Origin: a virus
IMG/VR virus record: IMGVR_UViG_3300046694_000202
Coordinates: 1 to 64,000 of that record
Reading direction: 5' to 3' (one strand)
Length of the DNA stretch: 64,000 bases
A program made the translations under genes and the position numbers. A model generated the notes under the pieces. It was not told where the DNA came from, ran no database searches, and was given only the letters and a program-made list of their open reading frames with translations. Of the stretch, positions 54,337 to 61,988 are shown piece by piece (position 1 is the first letter of the stretch; each line of letters starts with the position of its first letter).

Positions 54337-57300
54337 ATGACCGACGCAGTAATTCCCTTCCGTGGGGCGGGCGGTGGCCAGAAGCAGCCGACCCGCACCG
54401 ACGACAACCTCTTCTCTCGCGACGTAGTCGAGATCGTCTTTGCCCTCGGCGAAGGCCCGATCCGCGGCCCGGTCGACGGTATGAAGTCGATCTACGTGGG
54501 CGGCACGCCCGCGATGTCGCAGGACGGCTCCACGAATTTCGACAGCTTCAACGTCGGTATCATGCGCGGCCACGCGGGCGATCCGCCGGTCAACTATCGG
54601 CTCGGTGGCGAAACCTCGAACACGTCGGTCGGCGTTCGACTCTTCCAGAACACGTGGGTCTCGCGCACGACCGATGACTCGCTGCGCAACAAGGTTGACC
54701 AGCTCCAGGCGCGGATTCTCTTCAACACGCTGTACAAGTCCAACGACGATGGCACGTTCAACAACACCGCGTCGTTCGAACTCCAGTATCGCCAGTCGAC
54801 CAACCCGAACTGGTCAGCGGTCAACGGTGGCACGATCAACGTCACAGGCAAGACCACGGCTGGCTATGTGGTCGACTATGTGTGGGACGTGCCGCGCGTG
54901 AATGACACGTGGGTCATCCGCGTGAAAAAGAACAACCCGGATTCGAGCAACACCGACTTCTGTGACTTTAGCTGGGAGAGCTTTCAGGAAGTCACGAAGG
55001 GCAACCGCACGTACGACCGCGTGGCCCTCATGCACATCGTCGCGCTCGCGACGAGCCAGTTCTCGTCGGTGCCCGACATCGGCATCGATCTGGACGGTCT
55101 CGAGATTTTGGTCCCGACGAACTACAACCCCGACGCGCACGCAACCGCTGGCACGTGGGATGGCTCCTTCAAGCAGGCGTGGACGAACAATCCGGCGTGG
55201 ATCCTGTACGACCTCATCATGAACACGAGCTACGGGCTGCGGAAATATTACCCGTGGCTCACGTGCAACCGCTTCGACTTCTACGACGCGGCAGCATGGT
55301 GCGACGCGCCTGTCCCGAACGGTGTGGGTGGCTCGCAGCCGCGCTACACGTTCAGCATGGTCGTCAAGGACCAGCAGTCGGGCCTCGACATGCTCCAATA
55401 CGTGGCGGGTTCCTTCGGCGCGTGCATCTTCGATGACGCGACGGGAACGGTGCATCTGCGCGTGGACAAGTGGGAAGAGCCGTCTATGCTCTTCACCCCA
55501 GAGAACGTGACCCCGGAAGGCTTCGCCTACACGTTCTCGGACATGAGCACTCGATACAACGACATCGAGGTCAAGTTCGTGAACCCGGACCTGGACTGGC
55601 AGCAGGACATCCGGCCCGCGCGCAATCAGGATCACATCAATCTCAACGGCAGCATCCCACTCTCCTTTGACGCCATCGGCTGCACGAACGAGCACGAAGC
55701 ACTGCGCCGCGCCTACTATCGCCTCGTCACGGCCACGACGGAAGTCGCGACGGTGCAGTTCACGACCACGCGCCTCGGCGTGCTGCTCGACCCCTTCAAG
55801 CCGATCTACGTCGCCGACCCGGTGACGGGCTGGGCCGAGAGCGGCCGGATCAAGTCGATCATCAACGGCAAGATCAACCTGCGCGACCCGATCTACTTCA
55901 CGAGCAACCAGAACTACACGCTGAAGCTGCAGACCACCACGGGCATCTCGACGTTCACTGTGAACCCCGGCATGATCGGCTCGGTGTATGCGCTCAACAT
56001 CGTGTCTGGCATCGTGCCGGCGAACGTGCCTGATCGCTCGGTGTTCTCGCTGGAGGACACAGGTGGCTTCGGTCTGTCGAAGCCGTTCCGTGTGATCTCG
56101 GTGGAGCCGGCCGACAACAGCCCGAACGCATACTCGGTCACCGCTGTTGAGATGAACATCAACAAGCAGTGGGCCGCAGACAACTGCATCCCGATCGGCT
56201 CGGTCCCGTACTCGTTCAAGAACCCGCTGATTCCGCCGCCGCCGAGCAACCTCGTCTGCGAGTCGGGCACGGACATGCTGCTGCTCGGGCAAGACGGCTC
56301 GATCATGGCGCGGATCTTCGCCCACTGGGATCCGCCCGGTAGCGCGCTGGTCGACCGCTACATCATCCGCTGGAAGGAAAGCCTCCAGAACACGTGGTTC
56401 GAGACGAACTCCACGGGCGAGAGCGTCATCCTCGCACCGTGCAAGACCGGCACGACCTACGACATCGTGATCGAGGCGGTGAGCGCGTTCGGCTATCGCA
56501 GCTCGCAGCTGCAGCTCTGGAACTATAAGTGCGTCGGCAAGGACCAGCCGCCGAGCAACGTGAAGAACTTCCGCTTCACGCGCCGCGCGCTCGACATCCT
56601 GCTGACGTGGGATGCGATCCCTGACTTGGACCGCTTCGGCTACGAGCTGCGCCTTGGCTCCACGTGGGACACCGCGAAGGTGCTCGTGACCGACTACGCG
56701 GCCACGCAGTTCGCCTGGACGACGGACACGGGCGGCAGCTACAACTTCCTGATCCGCGCGAAGGACACGTCGGGCAACCTGTCGCTGCAAGCGACGATCT
56801 GCTCGGCGCTGCTCACCGGCCCGTCGCCGGTTGGCGGCGTCATCGCGATCCAGTCGGGCAACCGCGTGGACTTGCGCTGGGATCCGAACCCCGAGGACAA
56901 CATCCTCGACTACGAGATCCGCGAAGGCTCGACGTGGGCCACCGGCATCTTCTTGGCGAAGGTCAAGTCGACGAGCTACAGCGTGACCGCTGGTTCGTCT
57001 GGCACGCGCCTCTTCTGGCTCAAGGCCATCGCCTCACCGGGGATCTACTCCGACAAGGCGACGTTCGTCACGACCGACATCGCGAAGTCCGACAACACGA
57101 ACATCATCTACACCACAGACGAAGTGGTGAACCAGTTCGCCGGCACGAAGTACAACATGGTCACCTACGGCCCCGCGCAGCTGCGGATGGACGACGGCAA
57201 GGCCAAGTCGGAATACATGTTCTCGGTCGCGCTCGCGGACGTGTTCAAGGCACAGAACTCGCTGTTCATCGGCCTGGACGCGATCGTCGACGACAAGACG

Positions 57301-57921
57301 ACCTGGGCGCAATCGACCTATCCTTGGAAAGACCCGCAAGCGAACAAGGGCTGGACGACCCCTGGCGACGTGGCGTCGATCAAGTACTCGATCCAGATCT
57401 CGATGTCGACGGGCAACCCGACCGGCGTGCTGTACCAGTGGCGCATGGACAACACGCTGACTTACGCGGGCGTTGGCGAAGATGGCTCGGTCACCGAAAG
57501 CCAGACGGTCACGTACAAACCGAGCAAGTACGGCGCCGGACTCTACTGTCAAGTCGCCCCGCTGCAACCGCTGCCGACGAAGGTCACGTTCAGCACCAAC
57601 GTGCCGAACATCTTCAGCACCACGTTCTGGATCCTGCCGGATGACCTGACCGACAAGGTGTTCATGACGGTGGTCGGCCGTGACGGGAAGTTCATCAAGC
57701 TCGGCTACACCGCCGCCACCCTGTCGCTGTATGCGATCGACAACGATGGCACGAAAGTCTCGATGCCGATCGGTCTCGCAGTGGGCGAGCGCTTCCTCGT
57801 CGGTCTGTCGCAAGACACGAACGATCGCCGGATCTACTTCGCGAAGGAAAGCGGCGCGTGGTATCGCGCGTCGATCGCCAAGGGTGGAATCGGCGCTGGC
57901 GTCCAAGTCAAACTCTACTGA
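54337..57921 (+). CDS. central tail tip protein, host specificity (gpJ-like)
   Basis: 1194 residues. N-terminal hub (about 1-480) with GEGPIRGPVDGMKSIYVGGT and tip-attachment core features, followed by three fibronectin type III-like domains (about 630-905: FAHWDPPGSALVDRYIIRWK; TWDAIPDLDRFGYELRLGST; RWDPNPEDNILDYEIREGST). The C-terminal third is a beta-rich receptor-facing region. It ends the conical tail tip and contacts the cell. 3-base spacing to the next gene. Confidence 0.93.
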   Translation: MTDAVIPFRGAGGGQKQPTRTDDNLFSRDVVEIVFALGEGPIRGPVDGMKSIYVGGTPAMSQDGSTNFDSFNVGIMRGHAGDPPVNYRLGGETSNTSVGVRLFQNTWVSRTTDDSLRNKVDQLQARILFNTLYKSNDDGTFNNTASFELQYRQSTNPNWSAVNGGTINVTGKTTAGYVVDYVWDVPRVNDTWVIRVKKNNPDSSNTDFCDFSWESFQEVTKGNRTYDRVALMHIVALATSQFSSVPDIGIDLDGLEILVPTNYNPDAHATAGTWDGSFKQAWTNNPAWILYDLIMNTSYGLRKYYPWLTCNRFDFYDAAAWCDAPVPNGVGGSQPRYTFSMVVKDQQSGLDMLQYVAGSFGACIFDDATGTVHLRVDKWEEPSMLFTPENVTPEGFAYTFSDMSTRYNDIEVKFVNPDLDWQQDIRPARNQDHINLNGSIPLSFDAIGCTNEHEALRRAYYRLVTATTEVATVQFTTTRLGVLLDPFKPIYVADPVTGWAESGRIKSIINGKINLRDPIYFTSNQNYTLKLQTTTGISTFTVNPGMIGSVYALNIVSGIVPANVPDRSVFSLEDTGGFGLSKPFRVISVEPADNSPNAYSVTAVEMNINKQWAADNCIPIGSVPYSFKNPLIPPPPSNLVCESGTDMLLLGQDGSIMARIFAHWDPPGSALVDRYIIRWKESLQNTWFETNSTGESVILAPCKTGTTYDIVIEAVSAFGYRSSQLQLWNYKCVGKDQPPSNVKNFRFTRRALDILLTWDAIPDLDRFGYELRLGSTWDTAKVLVTDYAATQFAWTTDTGGSYNFLIRAKDTSGNLSLQATICSALLTGPSPVGGVIAIQSGNRVDLRWDPNPEDNILDYEIREGSTWATGIFLAKVKSTSYSVTAGSSGTRLFWLKAIASPGIYSDKATFVTTDIAKSDNTNIIYTTDEVVNQFAGTKYNMVTYGPAQLRMDDGKAKSEYMFSVALADVFKAQNSLFIGLDAIVDDKTTWAQSTYPWKDPQANKGWTTPGDVASIKYSIQISMSTGNPTGVLYQWRMDNTLTYAGVGEDGSVTESQTVTYKPSKYGAGLYCQVAPLQPLPTKVTFSTNVPNIFSTTFWILPDDLTDKVFMTVVGRDGKFIKLGYTAATLSLYAIDNDGTKVSMPIGLAVGERFLVGLSQDTNDRRIYFAKESGAWYRASIAKGGIGAGVQVKLY

Positions 57922-57923
57922 TC

Positions 57924-58391
57924 ATGCCGCATACCATCTCCGACATCACCTTCAAGTCGACCGTGCTCGACGACGACAGCTTCGTGAAGAAGGTCAACTA
58001 CGACGCCCCGGAGGGGTTCTCCCCCTTCCAGAACTTCTTCGCGGGCGACTACACGTACAAGAACGCGATCTTCCGGCTCGGGATGGAGTCGGAAGCAGGC
58101 GACCGCGGCATCATCAACAAGCTGCAGCTGGTGGTCGACGTGCCCGACATCTTCGACCGTGGCCTCACGATCGTGAACACGGCCGGCATCATCCGCGTGT
58201 TCTTCAACCGCCCTTTTCACATCCCGCCCACGATGGTCGTGGCGGTGGAAAGCGCGAGCGACGCCTGCGTGGCGCGCGTGGTTTCCGGAGCGCTCGGGGT
58301 CACAAAGACCTACTTCGACTGCTATCTCGAACGCACGAGCGACAAAGCGAAGATCACCGGAGCGTTGACGTGGGCCGCGCACGCCTACTAA
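57924..58391 (+). CDS. tail-tip associated protein
   Basis: 155 residues from ATG 57924, directly after J. Beta-rich with two similar halves. No family recognised. By position a small tail-tip or fibre attachment protein. Confidence 0.66.
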   Translation: MPHTISDITFKSTVLDDDSFVKKVNYDAPEGFSPFQNFFAGDYTYKNAIFRLGMESEAGDRGIINKLQLVVDVPDIFDRGLTIVNTAGIIRVFFNRPFHIPPTMVVAVESASDACVARVVSGALGVTKTYFDCYLERTSDKAKITGALTWAAHAY

Positions 58392-58451: not shown

Positions 58452-59936
58452 ATGCAGAATTACACCCAGATTCCGGACAGCCAGCGGATCTCCGATTCGC
58501 TGCTGCCGCTCCTGAATAACGACCAGACCGGGATCTCGCGCAACGCCGGGGACAACTACCCGACCATCGGTCTCGTCGTGGGGATGCCCTACTACAGCAC
58601 GAGCCAGAACAAGCTGTTCCGCCTGTCGAGCCTGTCACCGCTCACGTGGGTGGTCGAGATCGACTACAACCGGCCGTACGCGTATCAGGATAGCGTCGAT
58701 GCTGCAAACGCAAACGCCAACGGGCGCGTGTCGCGGGCCGGCGACATCATGTCGGGCTTCCTCACGCTGAGCGGCGACCCGACCGCCGCGCTGCACGCCG
58801 CGTCGAAACGGTACGTCGATGCGCAGACCACCGTCGCGATCAACAGCGCGAACTCGCGCGTCTCGCGCGGCGGCGACAGCATGTCTGGTTTCCTGACGCT
58901 GTACACCGACCCGCAGCAGCCCTACCACGCCGCGACGAAGAACTACGTCGACGTGTACATCAACAGCTTGGCGGGCAGCAAGCTCGCGAAGAACGGCGAC
59001 ACGCTCGGCGAAGTGTTCAACAACGGCTGGTATCGCTCAAACGGCGCGGTGGGCTGGTACAACCAGACGTATGGTGGCGGCATCTTCCAGAACCAGGGGG
59101 GCTACGTCAGCACCTTTGGCGGCACAGGCTTCCTGACTCCGTGGCACACGCTCGAAGTGAACACGGGCGGCATCTGGACGGCGCGCTACGGCTGGCTCGA
59201 AAACCGGTTCGCGGACAAGAGCGCCGAGGGCAGCTTCAACTCGTGCGGCACGCTGAACAACTCGACGAACCCGACCGTGGTCCCCGGCTCGTTCTATCTC
59301 CAGGCGAGCGGCCGTCAGGTGCAGCTCGTGCGTACCTTCGGCAACTGCAACTGCAACTGCGCCTGCACGTGCTTCCCCGCAGGCACGCGGATCCTGATGG
59401 GCGACAAGAAGACGTGGCGCGCGGTCGAGACGCTGCAGGTCGGCGAGATCGTCATGACCCCGACCGGCCCCGAGCCGATCCTTGAGATCGAGACGCCGTA
59501 CCTTGGCTCGCGCAAGATGTGCATGTTCGCCGACGGCTCGCTGAAGTGGACCGATGACCACGCGTTCTGGACGCGCCGCGACGGCGTGCAGGGATTCTCG
59601 GTGGTCGACAAGGACTCGTTCATGAACGGCGTCGAGGCGGGTCTCGTGAAGGGCCTGAAGAACCACGACGACCTGCTGGTGATGAACGACCGCCTGGACG
59701 AGTTCGCGCACCTTGAGGGCTGGAAGAAGAAGCGCGTGTTCCGCTACACGCAGCCGGCCGAAACGAAGGTCTATCTGCCGATCGTCGGTGGCTCGCACAT
59801 GATCATCGCTGAAGGCTTCGTCGTCAGCGCGGGCATGGACGAAGAGACGTTCGACTACAAATCGCTGGACTGGAAGGGCATGGACATCGCTCACCAGCCA
59901 ATCAACCGTGAGGCGTTCTTCGATGCTCGTTCATAA
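58452..59936 (+). CDS. tail fibre with C-terminal CxCxCxCxC tract and Hint (intein-like) domain
   Basis: 494 residues. Residues about 1-75 probably attach the fibre. Two fibre repeats follow (AGDIMSGFLTLSGDPTAALH and GGDSMSGFLTLYTDPQQPYH, each ending YVD; about 95-170), then a beta-rich shaft/tip (about 175-290). The tract at 299-307 has Cys at every second position, and C307 begins a Hint domain (CFPAGTRILM; block B motif KWTDDHAFWT with His370). The usual C-terminal His-Asn of splicing inteins is absent (ends VVSAGM), so N-terminal cleavage or ester transfer at C307 is expected instead of splicing. The stop overlaps the next start by 14 bases. Confidence 0.88.
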   Translation: MQNYTQIPDSQRISDSLLPLLNNDQTGISRNAGDNYPTIGLVVGMPYYSTSQNKLFRLSSLSPLTWVVEIDYNRPYAYQDSVDAANANANGRVSRAGDIMSGFLTLSGDPTAALHAASKRYVDAQTTVAINSANSRVSRGGDSMSGFLTLYTDPQQPYHAATKNYVDVYINSLAGSKLAKNGDTLGEVFNNGWYRSNGAVGWYNQTYGGGIFQNQGGYVSTFGGTGFLTPWHTLEVNTGGIWTARYGWLENRFADKSAEGSFNSCGTLNNSTNPTVVPGSFYLQASGRQVQLVRTFGNCNCNCACTCFPAGTRILMGDKKTWRAVETLQVGEIVMTPTGPEPILEIETPYLGSRKMCMFADGSLKWTDDHAFWTRRDGVQGFSVVDKDSFMNGVEAGLVKGLKNHDDLLVMNDRLDEFAHLEGWKKKRVFRYTQPAETKVYLPIVGGSHMIIAEGFVVSAGMDEETFDYKSLDWKGMDIAHQPINREAFFDARS

Positions 59937-60630
59937 AAGCCTGATCCCCACGGATCTCACCGAAGAGGAAGCGCAGCAGACCGTTGACATCGTCAACGTT
60001 CTGCCGGTCGGCAACGGCTTCACGATGCAGTGCGCGTCGCTGAGCCTCTACTGGCAGTTCAATCTCGACCTCGTCAAGTACGGCAACGACGTGATGTACC
60101 TGTGTCGTACCCGTACCAACCAGTGGGTCGTGATGTGGGCCACGGATCTGCACGAGTCGAAGGACAGCTTTTCCTCGGCTATGCTGCGCAAGAACGTGGA
60201 TGAGTTCAAACCAGTGGTGATGATCGGCATCAACGCGGACAAGACCGACTACACCGCCCTCTTCTTCTGCAACTCGCGCGAACCTAACAACCCGAATCCC
60301 CAGGTTGATGACGCCGCCGAGAGTGGTGACATGACGATGAAGCGGTTGATGCCATCGATCGAGCCGTTGTTGCAACGTCATTGGGCCAAGCACAAGCTGC
60401 TCAAGGACACGAAAACGAACGACTCATTGGCCGCTCTGGAGGCCCAAGTGGACCTGCTCACGAGCTGGCTGCTGATGCTCCTGCCCCTGCAGGCCGACAA
60501 GCTCCAAAGACTCCTTGACGTTGGCGTGCTGACGTTGAAAGATAGTGACGTAGCCCTGGATGACGTGGTCGCATTTAAAAGCGCACTCCGTGAAAGGCAG
60601 GCGCTTTACCTCGCGACTATCGGCAAATGA
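59923..60630 (+). CDS. unknown protein coupled to fibre and radical SAM genes
   Basis: 235 residues. An N-terminal region (PTDLTEEEAQQTVDIVNVLP, then LSLYWQFNLDLVKYGNDVMY) recalls small binding proteins, followed by a helical C-terminal half (AQVDLLTSWLLMLLPLQADK). No family recognised. It overlaps the fibre gene by 14 bases and the radical SAM gene by 4 bases, so it is probably a chaperone, recognition protein or partner in fibre processing (inference). Confidence 0.7.
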   Translation: MLVHKSLIPTDLTEEEAQQTVDIVNVLPVGNGFTMQCASLSLYWQFNLDLVKYGNDVMYLCRTRTNQWVVMWATDLHESKDSFSSAMLRKNVDEFKPVVMIGINADKTDYTALFFCNSREPNNPNPQVDDAAESGDMTMKRLMPSIEPLLQRHWAKHKLLKDTKTNDSLAALEAQVDLLTSWLLMLLPLQADKLQRLLDVGVLTLKDSDVALDDVVAFKSALRERQALYLATIGK

Positions 60631-61988
60631 CAACCTTCGTTCTCAAGACGCTCGACGCTAACAACGTCGAGCGTCGGTTTTTCTACAACAACATGCGCAG
60701 CACGCTGGTCGAGGCACAGACCGGCCGCTCGGTGATTCCGACTCGAGCCGCAGACACCCCGCAAAGCCCCGCCCAGCAAGACTTCCGCAAATCGAAAACG
60801 ATCCGGACGCTGAAGATCCAGCTCGGTCTCTCGTGTAATTACAGCTGCGATTACTGCTCGCAGCGCTTCGTGCCGCACGACGAGCCGACTGGCCCCTACT
60901 CCGTCGACCACTTCATCTCGCGCTTGAGCTGGAACGCCTCGCTCGCCGACGATGCCACGATCGAGTTCTGGGGTGGCGAGCCGCTGGTCTACTGGAAGAC
61001 GCTGGTCCCGCTGGTCGAGCAGCTGCGCATCCGCTACCCCGCGCTCACGTTCCGCATGATCACGAACGGCTCGCTGCTGGACCCGATGAAGGCGAGCTGG
61101 CTGATCACGAACGGCTTCCACATCGGCATCAGCCACGACGGTCCTGGCCAGCACGTGCGCGGCCCCGATCCGCTCGATGATCCGGAGAAGCGCGAGGCGA
61201 TCCTCATGCTGTACCGGCGCCTGCGTCCGCTCGGCCGTATCAGTTTCAACGCGATGCTGCACTCGCAAAATACGTCGCGCGCGGCGATCCAGCAGTTCTT
61301 CGTGAAGCTCACGGGCGACGAGGAAGTGCCGGTCGGTGAAGGCATGTTCGTCGATGCCTACGATGAAGGTGGCCGGGGCATGTCTTTCCTTGACGCCGCG
61401 GATCACGTCGAATATCGTCGCAAGGCGTTCACCGAGCTGAAGTCTGGGCTGGCCCTCAACTTCGGATCGGTGACCGAAAAGATTCACGACTTTGCAGAGT
61501 CAGTCGCCACGGGTCGGCCGGCGTCTACCGTAGGGCAGAAGTGCGGTTCCGATCGCGCGGACACCCTCACGGTGACACTGACAGGCGACGTTCTCACTTG
61601 CCAAAACGTCTCGGCTGTTTCCGTTGCCCCGAACGGGAAGAGCCACCGCGCTGGCAATTGGGACGAAATGGATCAGGTGCGGGTCGCCTCCTCGCGCCAC
61701 TGGTCGACTCGTGAGCACTGTTCGAGCTGCCCGGTCGTGCAATTGTGCAAGGGCAGCTGCATGTTCCTCGAAGGCGATCTCTGGAATGTCACGTGCGATA
61801 CGGCCTACAGCGATAACGTCGTGTTCCTCGCGACCGCCCTTCTGGAGCTGACCGGCTGCACCCTGCAACGCATCGAGCCGATGACTGGCTCGTTGCCTGA
61901 GCACCGCCAGGACGTTTTCACGCCACTGGCGAAAAAGAGCGGGACCACCACCCCGCGCAAAATCATACGGATCAACACGGAAAAGTAA
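60627..61988 (+). CDS. radical SAM enzyme with complete SPASM domain
   Basis: 453 residues. The radical SAM core has the CNYSCDYC (CxxxCxxC: C70, C74, C77) cluster site and the GGEP glycine motif EFWGGEPLVYW (about 113-123). The C-terminus carries the full SPASM pattern: C306-x13-G-x4-C325, then C365-x2-C-x5-C-x3-C378 and a final C390, which would hold two auxiliary [4Fe-4S] clusters. Enzymes of this type modify peptides or proteins (thioether links, oxidised Ser/Cys, epimerised residues). A phage-encoded, fibre-linked copy with all these cysteines is unusual; the fibre is the obvious candidate substrate (inference). Confidence 0.95.
   Translation: MTTFVLKTLDANNVERRFFYNNMRSTLVEAQTGRSVIPTRAADTPQSPAQQDFRKSKTIRTLKIQLGLSCNYSCDYCSQRFVPHDEPTGPYSVDHFISRLSWNASLADDATIEFWGGEPLVYWKTLVPLVEQLRIRYPALTFRMITNGSLLDPMKASWLITNGFHIGISHDGPGQHVRGPDPLDDPEKREAILMLYRRLRPLGRISFNAMLHSQNTSRAAIQQFFVKLTGDEEVPVGEGMFVDAYDEGGRGMSFLDAADHVEYRRKAFTELKSGLALNFGSVTEKIHDFAESVATGRPASTVGQKCGSDRADTLTVTLTGDVLTCQNVSAVSVAPNGKSHRAGNWDEMDQVRVASSRHWSTREHCSSCPVVQLCKGSCMFLEGDLWNVTCDTAYSDNVVFLATALLELTGCTLQRIEPMTGSLPEHRQDVFTPLAKKSGTTTPRKIIRINTEK

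What the first reader, a model, noticed from the sequence alone, without database searches (positions are those of the whole stretch)
58452..61988. Tail fibre with CxCxCxCxC-Hint C-terminus coupled to a radical SAM/SPASM enzyme: possible phage fibre-modification system
The fibre ends in a tract with Cys at every second residue (299, 301, 303, 305, 307). The last Cys is also residue 1 of a Hint domain with a TxxH block but no His-Asn ending. Directly downstream, with 14- and 4-base overlaps, lie an unknown protein and a radical SAM enzyme with every SPASM cysteine (CX13GX4C, CX2CX5CX3C, C). Enzymes with this pattern install thioethers and related modifications in RiPPs and protein targets. The simplest model is that the enzyme modifies the Cys/Asn tract, and the Hint domain then cleaves or transfers it, leaving a modified fibre terminus. 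I know no described phage receptor-binding protein matured this way.
Basis: partly seen in the sequence, partly recalled or inferred. Interest (0 to 1): 0.95.

Follow-up and report, generated by a model that had tools for sequence, protein, structure and literature searches.

The report
Radical-enzyme maturation of phage fibre tips
Many uncultured phages, and two cultured Achromobacter phages, build tail fibres that end in a string of alternating cysteines and encode beside them a radical SAM enzyme of the type that chemically cross-links peptides, so phages probably install an unknown chemical modification on the tips of the fibres they use to attach to bacteria.

Summary
In detail: a tail fibre with Cys at 299/301/303/305/307, a Hint domain starting at C307, a 235-aa protein overlapping by 14 bases, and a radical SAM/SPASM enzyme overlapping by 4.

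It is not a one-off. A tract-selected scan of viral contigs gave 95 loci with a protein ending in such a tract (or tract plus Hint). Of 75 with enough downstream sequence, 73 have the radical SAM gene and the other two a decayed remnant. An equally specific Asn-Gly control pattern gave 2 of 120. Conversely, of 59 testable enzyme-selected loci, 56 have an alternating-Cys or Asn-Cys-rich protein nearby.

In most relatives there is no Hint: the fibre simply stops after the tract. The tract is therefore probably the mature tip, and Hint an optional, repeatedly acquired self-cleaving follower. Cysteines outside the tract also follow Asn (217/287; Asn is 8.5% of residues).

Best model: the enzyme modifies Cys, probably within Asn-Cys units, and Hint then cuts at T306/C307. 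The chemistry (thioether most likely) and the benefit are not shown. Enzyme-tract coupling is well supported; the rest is inference. I found no published account in the open-access library searched.

The parts
58452..59936 (+). Tail fibre precursor (494 aa), next but one after the lambda-J-type tail tip gene; predicted substrate
   Evidence: ORF; weak PHROG tail-fibre hits; 47% identical to the JWF fibre (AJD82922.1) over 97%; alignment A2
59343..59372 (+). Alternating Cys tract NCNCNCACTC (residues 298-307)
   Evidence: conserved with synonymous changes
59370..59831 (+). Hint domain, B-type-BIL-like, residues 307 to about 460; predicted cleavage between T306 and C307
   Evidence: AlphaFold model and Foldseek matches to BIL2, gp41-1 intein and hedgehog
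59550..59561 (+). Hint block B motif T367-D-D-H370
   Evidence: H invariant in 11 Hint-bearing fibres
59796..59819 (+). Hint C-terminal block HMIIAEGF without His-Asn
59923..60630 (+). Partner protein F5 (235 aa from ATG 59923), unknown function; beta-rich N-terminal domain plus long C-terminal helices
   Evidence: alignment; AlphaFold pLDDT 84; no PDB fold match; family present in 16 of 67 de-duplicated cassettes
60627..61988 (+). Radical SAM/SPASM enzyme (453 aa), proposed tract-modifying enzyme
   Evidence: PF04055 and TIGR04085 over cut-off; phrog_1802 E 8e-62
60834..60857 (+). CX3CX2C motif of the SAM-binding 4Fe-4S cluster (CNYSCDYC)
61542..61796 (+). SPASM cysteines: C306-X13-G-X4-C325, C365-X2-C-X5-C-X3-C378, C390

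Best explanation
This is a phage fibre-tip maturation cassette. The fibre is made as a precursor whose C-terminal alternating-Cys tract is the substrate of the neighbouring radical SAM/SPASM enzyme; the fibre body plays the part of a leader. The enzyme most likely forms S-C thioether (or related radical) bonds from the tract cysteines, by preference in Asn-Cys units. The partner protein probably presents, chaperones or caps the tip. In this phage and several others a B-type-BIL-like Hint domain follows the tract and self-cleaves at its own Cys1 (T306/C307), leaving the tract as the mature C-terminus; in most relatives the gene simply ends there. The modified tip then acts at the distal end of the fibre, for stability or receptor contact. 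Shown here: component identities, gene order, two-way co-occurrence, Asn-Cys bias, tract at the C-terminus, Hint fold and catalytic residues. Inferred: catalysis on the tract, bond type, order of steps, Hint cleavage, benefit.
For: Tract-selected loci: 71 of 95 carry the enzyme in the piece fetched, against 2 of 120 loci of the control pattern (Fisher p 4e-33). Restricted to loci with enough downstream sequence, 73 of 75 carry it (two of these found by whole-record search) and the last two keep a 52-residue remnant at 92% identity in the expected place. Same strand and downstream in 92 of 93 loci. Enzyme-selected loci: 51 of 61 by strict rule, plus 5 variants, 2 cut by the locus edge, 3 unresolved. 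Diversity: 57 enzymes form 33 clusters at 70% identity, and fibre bodies form 18 clusters at 40%, so this is not one phage lineage. Asn precedes 217 of 287 cysteines outside the tract, where Asn is 8.5% of residues, and 151 of 209 in the enzyme-selected set. The tract ends 0-7 residues before the stop in Hint-less fibres; Hint starts at or within about 3 residues of the last tract Cys. Hint occurs at three separate places in the enzyme tree. The nearest curated models to the enzyme are PapB and QhpD, which make Cys thioethers (own knowledge). The JWF-related phage Lumi, whose tail-tip protein extends over 10.9 kb, has no enzyme match and no comparable tract in the regions read.
Against: No biochemical or mass data. 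The enzyme is far below every equivalog cut-off, so its reaction cannot be read from annotation. No RiPP-recognition element was identified. Three enzyme-selected loci show no recognisable tract. One locus (L460) has alternating Cys without Asn, so Asn-Cys is a preference, not a rule. The window's own fibre has only one Cys between its N-terminus and the tract, and it follows Ser. Many contigs are fragments and partly redundant. The Rhodospirillales fibre L152 has tract plus Hint but no enzyme in the 1.3 kb downstream that is held.
Confidence: 0.74

Rival explanations
1. The tract is an inward-facing Cys needle of a fibre trimer that binds metal or forms disulfides, as the HxH needle of T4 gp37 binds iron, and is not covalently modified; the linked radical SAM enzyme serves another step.
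For: Alternating residues in an extended intertwined trimer face the axis (inference); T4 gp37 holds iron through HxH motifs (PMC11705849). Tracts of 4-9 Cys at the tip fit such a needle.
Against: It gives no reason for the near-obligate radical SAM partner in both directions, or for Asn before isolated cysteines outside any alternating stretch.
Confidence: 0.1
2. The enzyme acts on the tract but does not make thioethers: it epimerises or oxidises alternate residues (for example D-Asn) or converts Cys to another residue, and the cysteines serve a separate role.
For: SPASM enzymes catalyse many reactions (own knowledge); alternating spacing would suit an every-second-residue reaction; Asn is the dominant neighbour. 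All NCBIfam equivalog matches are below cut-off.
Against: Nearest models are thioether makers (PapB, QhpD); Cys is the invariant residue while Asn can be Ala, Asp or Thr.
Confidence: 0.2
3. The enzyme modifies something other than the fibre (the partner protein, a host factor or a small molecule) and is linked to the fibre only because tail-tip cassettes move together.
For: Tail fibre regions are known to exchange as modules (own knowledge); accessory enzymes (oxygenase-like, halogenase-like) also lie there.
Against: Partner families F2 and F5 replace each other and the fibre bodies differ, yet tract and enzyme stay together.
Confidence: 0.06
4. The Hint domain transfers the tract thioester to a nucleophile (partner protein, lipid or sugar amine) instead of hydrolysing it, so the tip becomes covalently attached to something. 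This can be true together with the best explanation.
For: It lacks His-Asn, like hedgehog and B-type BIL domains, whose thioester can be attacked by outside nucleophiles; best fold match is a BIL domain.
Against: Most homologous systems end the fibre at the tract without Hint, so a free tract end is sufficient.
Confidence: 0.12

Closest known systems
Ranthipeptide and QHNDH maturases (PapB, QhpD), SPASM radical SAM enzymes
   Same: Radical SAM core plus full SPASM Cys pattern; a Cys-containing substrate encoded next door; QhpD acts on a protein rather than a short peptide (own knowledge); these are among the nearest curated models
   Different: Far below equivalog cut-offs (55.6 of 340; 45.9 of 453); the substrate is a phage tail fibre ending in an alternating Asn-Cys tract, not a short precursor or an amine dehydrogenase subunit
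B-type bacterial intein-like (BIL) domains and hedgehog Hog-Hint domains
   Same: Hint fold, Cys1, TxxH, no His-Asn end (definition in PMC7765530)
   Different: Sits at a phage fibre C-terminus directly on a proposed radical SAM substrate tract; cleavage not shown
T4 gp37 HxH iron needle
   Same: Alternating metal- or thiol-capable residues in a phage fibre tip (PMC11705849)
   Different: Cys instead of His, nearly always with a radical SAM enzyme, at the extreme C-terminus
Achromobacter phages JWF and 2-1
   Same: The same three genes in the same order, cultured phages
   Different: Deposited only as 'Hom_end-associated Hint', 'hypothetical' and 'anaerobic sulfatase-maturating enzyme' or 'radical SAM domain-containing protein'; no functional link drawn in the records or the papers looked at

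Membership tests
Radical SAM superfamily | CX3CX2C motif and profile above cut-off | tested here: met
   CNYSCDYC at 70-77; PF04055 30.9 vs 29.5 bits
SPASM subgroup | CX9-15GX4C, CX2CX5CX3C and a further C | tested here: met
   All present and invariant in 16 relatives; TIGR04085 32.5 vs 27 bits
PapB ranthipeptide maturase (NF047865) | Equivalog score cut-off | tested here: not met
   55.6 of 340 bits
QhpD (TIGR03906) | Equivalog score cut-off | tested here: not met
   45.9 of 453 bits
Anaerobic sulfatase maturase (TIGR03942) | Equivalog score cut-off | tested here: not met
   43.7 of 349 bits, despite the name given in JWF
SPASM thioether-forming maturases (function) | Forms S-C bonds in the substrate | not testable with these tools
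   Needs enzyme assay or mass spectrometry
RiPP biosynthetic system | Short precursor with leader and core, released as a peptide | tested here: not met
   Substrate is a 494-aa fibre
RiPP biosynthetic system | RiPP recognition element | tested here: inconclusive
   The partner has no Pfam hit and no PDB fold match; no recognition element was seen, but it was not searched for exhaustively
Hint superfamily | Hint fold with Cys1 and block B TxxH | tested here: met
   Foldseek probability 1.00 to BIL, intein and hedgehog; C307, TDDH
Hint superfamily | Pfam Hint profile above cut-off | tested here: not met
   Hint_2 13.8 vs 28.4 bits
Intein / A-type BIL | C-terminal His-Asn | tested here: not met
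   Ends EGFVVSAG
B-type BIL | Intein motifs present except the C-terminal one | tested here: met
   Pattern fits
B-type BIL | N-terminal autocleavage | not testable with these tools
   Needs expression
Phage tail fibre | Position after the tail-tip gene and fibre homology | tested here: met
   Next but one to the J-type gene; weak PHROG tail-fibre hits and phage fibre matches
T4 gp37-type HxH needle | Repeated HxH motifs | tested here: not met
   Tract is NCNCNCACTC with no His

The most novel reading that the evidence does not exclude
A widespread, previously undescribed class of virion modification: phage fibre tips carry a radical-SAM-made cross-linked Asn-Cys structure, further decorated in some phages by oxygenases or a tryptophan-halogenase-like enzyme, which forms a non-proteinogenic receptor-contacting or armoured tip; Hint domains are a repeatedly recruited self-removing follower.
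Probability: 0.5. Interest if true: 0.95.

Novelty: new variant of a known kind. Interest (0 to 1): 0.88.

Why it matters
If true, phages use RiPP-like radical chemistry on the very part of the virion that meets the host, so sequence-based prediction of receptor-binding tips would miss a chemical layer. It gives a testable substrate motif (Asn-Cys), a likely enzyme, a possible natural context for a phage tryptophan-halogenase-like protein, and two cultured phages (JWF and 2-1) on which to test it. It would also add a virion-protein substrate to SPASM radical SAM chemistry and a plausible new biological role for BIL-type Hint domains.

Tried and rejected
Anaerobic sulfatase maturase (the JWF record's name): equivalog cut-off not met and no sulfatase seen. 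Hint as a core component: rejected, since most systems lack it. Chance tract: rejected by the Asn-Gly control pattern and by pattern matches that do not lie in a plausible tract gene (25 loci; only 4 have the enzyme; of those, L044 and L051 also bear the tract but fail the rule, one being followed by another domain and one cut; L110 and L130 were not inspected). Pattern scan of bacterial genomes gave mostly low-complexity noise with a few proviruses. Partner F5 by Pfam, NCBIfam, PHROGs and PDB fold search: no assignment. F5 versus F2 by profile comparison: no homology. Literature searches found no paper joining phage fibres with radical SAM or Hint maturation; the library holds open-access papers only. 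First collection pattern was too short.
Full report
The window lies in an 83,429-base IMG/VR virus record. Its tail module ends with a lambda-J-type tip protein (54337-57921; phrog_31 E 7e-162), a 157-aa protein (57918-58391), then the trio of the finding. All three genes are on the + strand and overlap: fibre 58452-59936, partner 59923-60630, radical SAM enzyme 60627-61988.

Observation. The fibre has Cys at 299, 301, 303, 305 and 307, and C307 starts CFPAGT. TDDH is at 367-370 and there is no His-Asn end. Pfam sees Hint only below its cut-offs, but an AlphaFold model of the C-terminal 220 residues (Hint core mostly pLDDT 75-92, one stretch lower) matches BIL2, gp41-1 intein and hedgehog structures with Foldseek probability 1.00. 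The enzyme carries CX3CX2C, CX13GX4C, CX2CX5CX3C and C390; all are invariant in 16 relatives, and both the radical SAM and SPASM profiles pass their cut-offs.

Nearest relatives. Cultured Achromobacter phages JWF and 2-1 carry the same three genes in the same order (enzyme 56 and 55% identical, fibre 47%, partner 36-37%), as do IMG/VR records L004-L009. The tract is kept in all nine while synonymous sites differ. Xylophilus phage Lumi, a JWF relative, has a J homologue inside a 10.9-kb tail gene; it gave no enzyme match and no comparable tract in the two regions read.

The tract predicts the enzyme. A DNA pattern for Asn-Cys-Asn-Cys-Asn-Cys-[Asn/Asp/Ala/Thr]-Cys was scanned over IMG/VR (it stopped at 120 stretches). 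Ninety-five loci contain a protein of at least 60 aa that ends in an alternating-Cys tract (or tract plus Hint). Seventy-one of these carry a radical SAM gene in the fetched piece, against 2 of 120 loci for an Asn-Gly pattern of the same form (Fisher p 4e-33). Of 75 loci with the enzyme or at least 2.5 kb downstream, two more were shown to have it elsewhere in the record (L127, L139). The last two (L073, L129) hold a 52-residue remnant, 92% identical, exactly where relatives have the gene. Over all tract loci held, the enzyme is on the same strand and downstream in 92 of 93.

The enzyme predicts the tract. An enzyme-based search kept the best 80 loci. Of 61 with at least 3 kb upstream, 51 have a strict tract. 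Inspecting the ten others gave five variants: L406 with tract plus Hint; L448 with a short NCRNCNC end; L450 with a downstream Asn-Cys-rich protein; L460 ending ACACDCVCDCACVCGNGG; and L463. Two loci are cut before the fibre (L396, L404) and three are unresolved (L405, L409, L417). That is 56 of 59 testable loci by a generous reading, 51 of 61 by the strict one. The two sets overlap in contigs and contain near-duplicates; after de-duplication 57 enzymes form 33 clusters at 70% identity and 65 fibre bodies form 18 clusters at 40%, so the association spans many phages.

Substrate motif. Outside the tract, where my pattern could not bias the result, Asn precedes 217 of 287 cysteines while Asn makes up 8.5% of residues. 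In the enzyme-selected set it is 151 of 209. Inside the tract Asn dominates, then Ala and Asp. L460 shows that Asn is not essential. The invariant feature is alternating Cys; Asn-Cys is a strong preference. The window's own fibre has a single Cys before the tract, preceded by Ser.

Position and Hint. In Hint-less fibres the tract ends 0-7 residues before the stop. In Hint-bearing fibres Hint begins at or within about 3 residues of the last tract Cys. In the enzyme tree Hint occurs at three separate places (the window clade, L095 and L010), and it is also in L119, L152, L247 and L406. The simplest reading is that the tract is the mature C-terminus and Hint is an optional self-removing follower. 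It has the features of a B-type BIL domain: intein motifs but no C-terminal motif (definition from PMC7765530). Cleavage itself is untested.

Partner and other cassette genes. The window's partner (family F5) is in 16 of 67 de-duplicated cassettes; another family, F2, with what looks like an Ig-like C-terminal domain, is in 43. The two were not seen together in any cassette and are not detectably homologous. F5 folds confidently (pLDDT 84) into a beta-rich domain plus long helices, with no PDB match. Its role is inferred only from place: presenting, chaperoning or capping the tip. Other recurrent neighbours are proteins resembling 2OG-Fe(II) oxygenases (28 loci; one member hits PF13759 below cut-off), a tryptophan-halogenase-family protein (PF04820, E 1e-31) in four loci, and a second radical SAM enzyme in four. 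Such a collection suggests multi-enzyme tip modification, but this is inference.

Mechanism. The best-supported explanation is that the SPASM enzyme modifies the tract cysteines. Its nearest curated models are PapB and QhpD, which form Cys thioethers (own knowledge), but every equivalog cut-off is missed by a wide margin, so the reaction is unknown. I give 0.74 to enzyme-on-tract coupling with a tract-terminated mature fibre, and about half that to thioethers specifically. Rivals are a metal or disulfide needle like T4 gp37 HxH (PMC11705849), epimerisation or another non-crosslinking reaction, a different substrate, and Hint-mediated transfer.

Novelty. The gene family exists in databases (phrog_1802; JWF as 'anaerobic sulfatase-maturating enzyme'), but no paper found in the open-access library joins radical SAM enzymes or Hint domains to phage fibre maturation. 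Subscription papers and preprints were not covered. The enzyme class is known; the substrate, motif, partners and context appear new, hence 'new variant of a known kind'.

Noticed in passing
L118:5871-7070 and the same gene family in L072, L092, L123: Tryptophan-halogenase-family gene (PF04820, E 1e-31) in the cassette after fibre, radical SAM and F2; may point to a protein substrate for a phage halogenase.
   Followed up: partly
L039, L045, L097, L139: A different phage type: short proteins ending 'HTHIFYDDYSTACNCNCNC' beside several diverse radical SAM genes not in the main enzyme cluster.
   Followed up: partly
L044 and L450 (8868 onward): Asn-Cys-rich tract followed not by Hint but by another domain of about 150 aa starting 'CSKIIC', perhaps an alternative follower.
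   Followed up: no
L087, L102, L114, L126: Three successive tract-bearing ORFs before one radical SAM gene, as if several tip variants share one enzyme.
   Followed up: no
L012, L013, L396, L404: Cassettes with fatty-acid-desaturase-like (His-box) and oxygenase-like genes between fibre and radical SAM enzyme.
   Followed up: partly
L152:1340-2905 (-): Rhodospirillales MAG provirus fibre with a long tract plus Hint and no radical SAM gene in the 1.3 kb held downstream.
   Followed up: partly
window 57918-58391: 157-aa protein between J and the fibre with a weak H-type lectin match (E 0.014, below cut-off); a similar protein stands in the same place in JWF and L009.
   Followed up: no
L073 and L129: Tract, F2 and oxygenase-like genes intact but radical SAM gene reduced to a 52-residue remnant; probably degraded proviruses.
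   Followed up: yes
PMC5332604: A marine T4-like viral genome reported with 12 radical SAM genes; worth checking for Cys-tract fibres.
   Followed up: no
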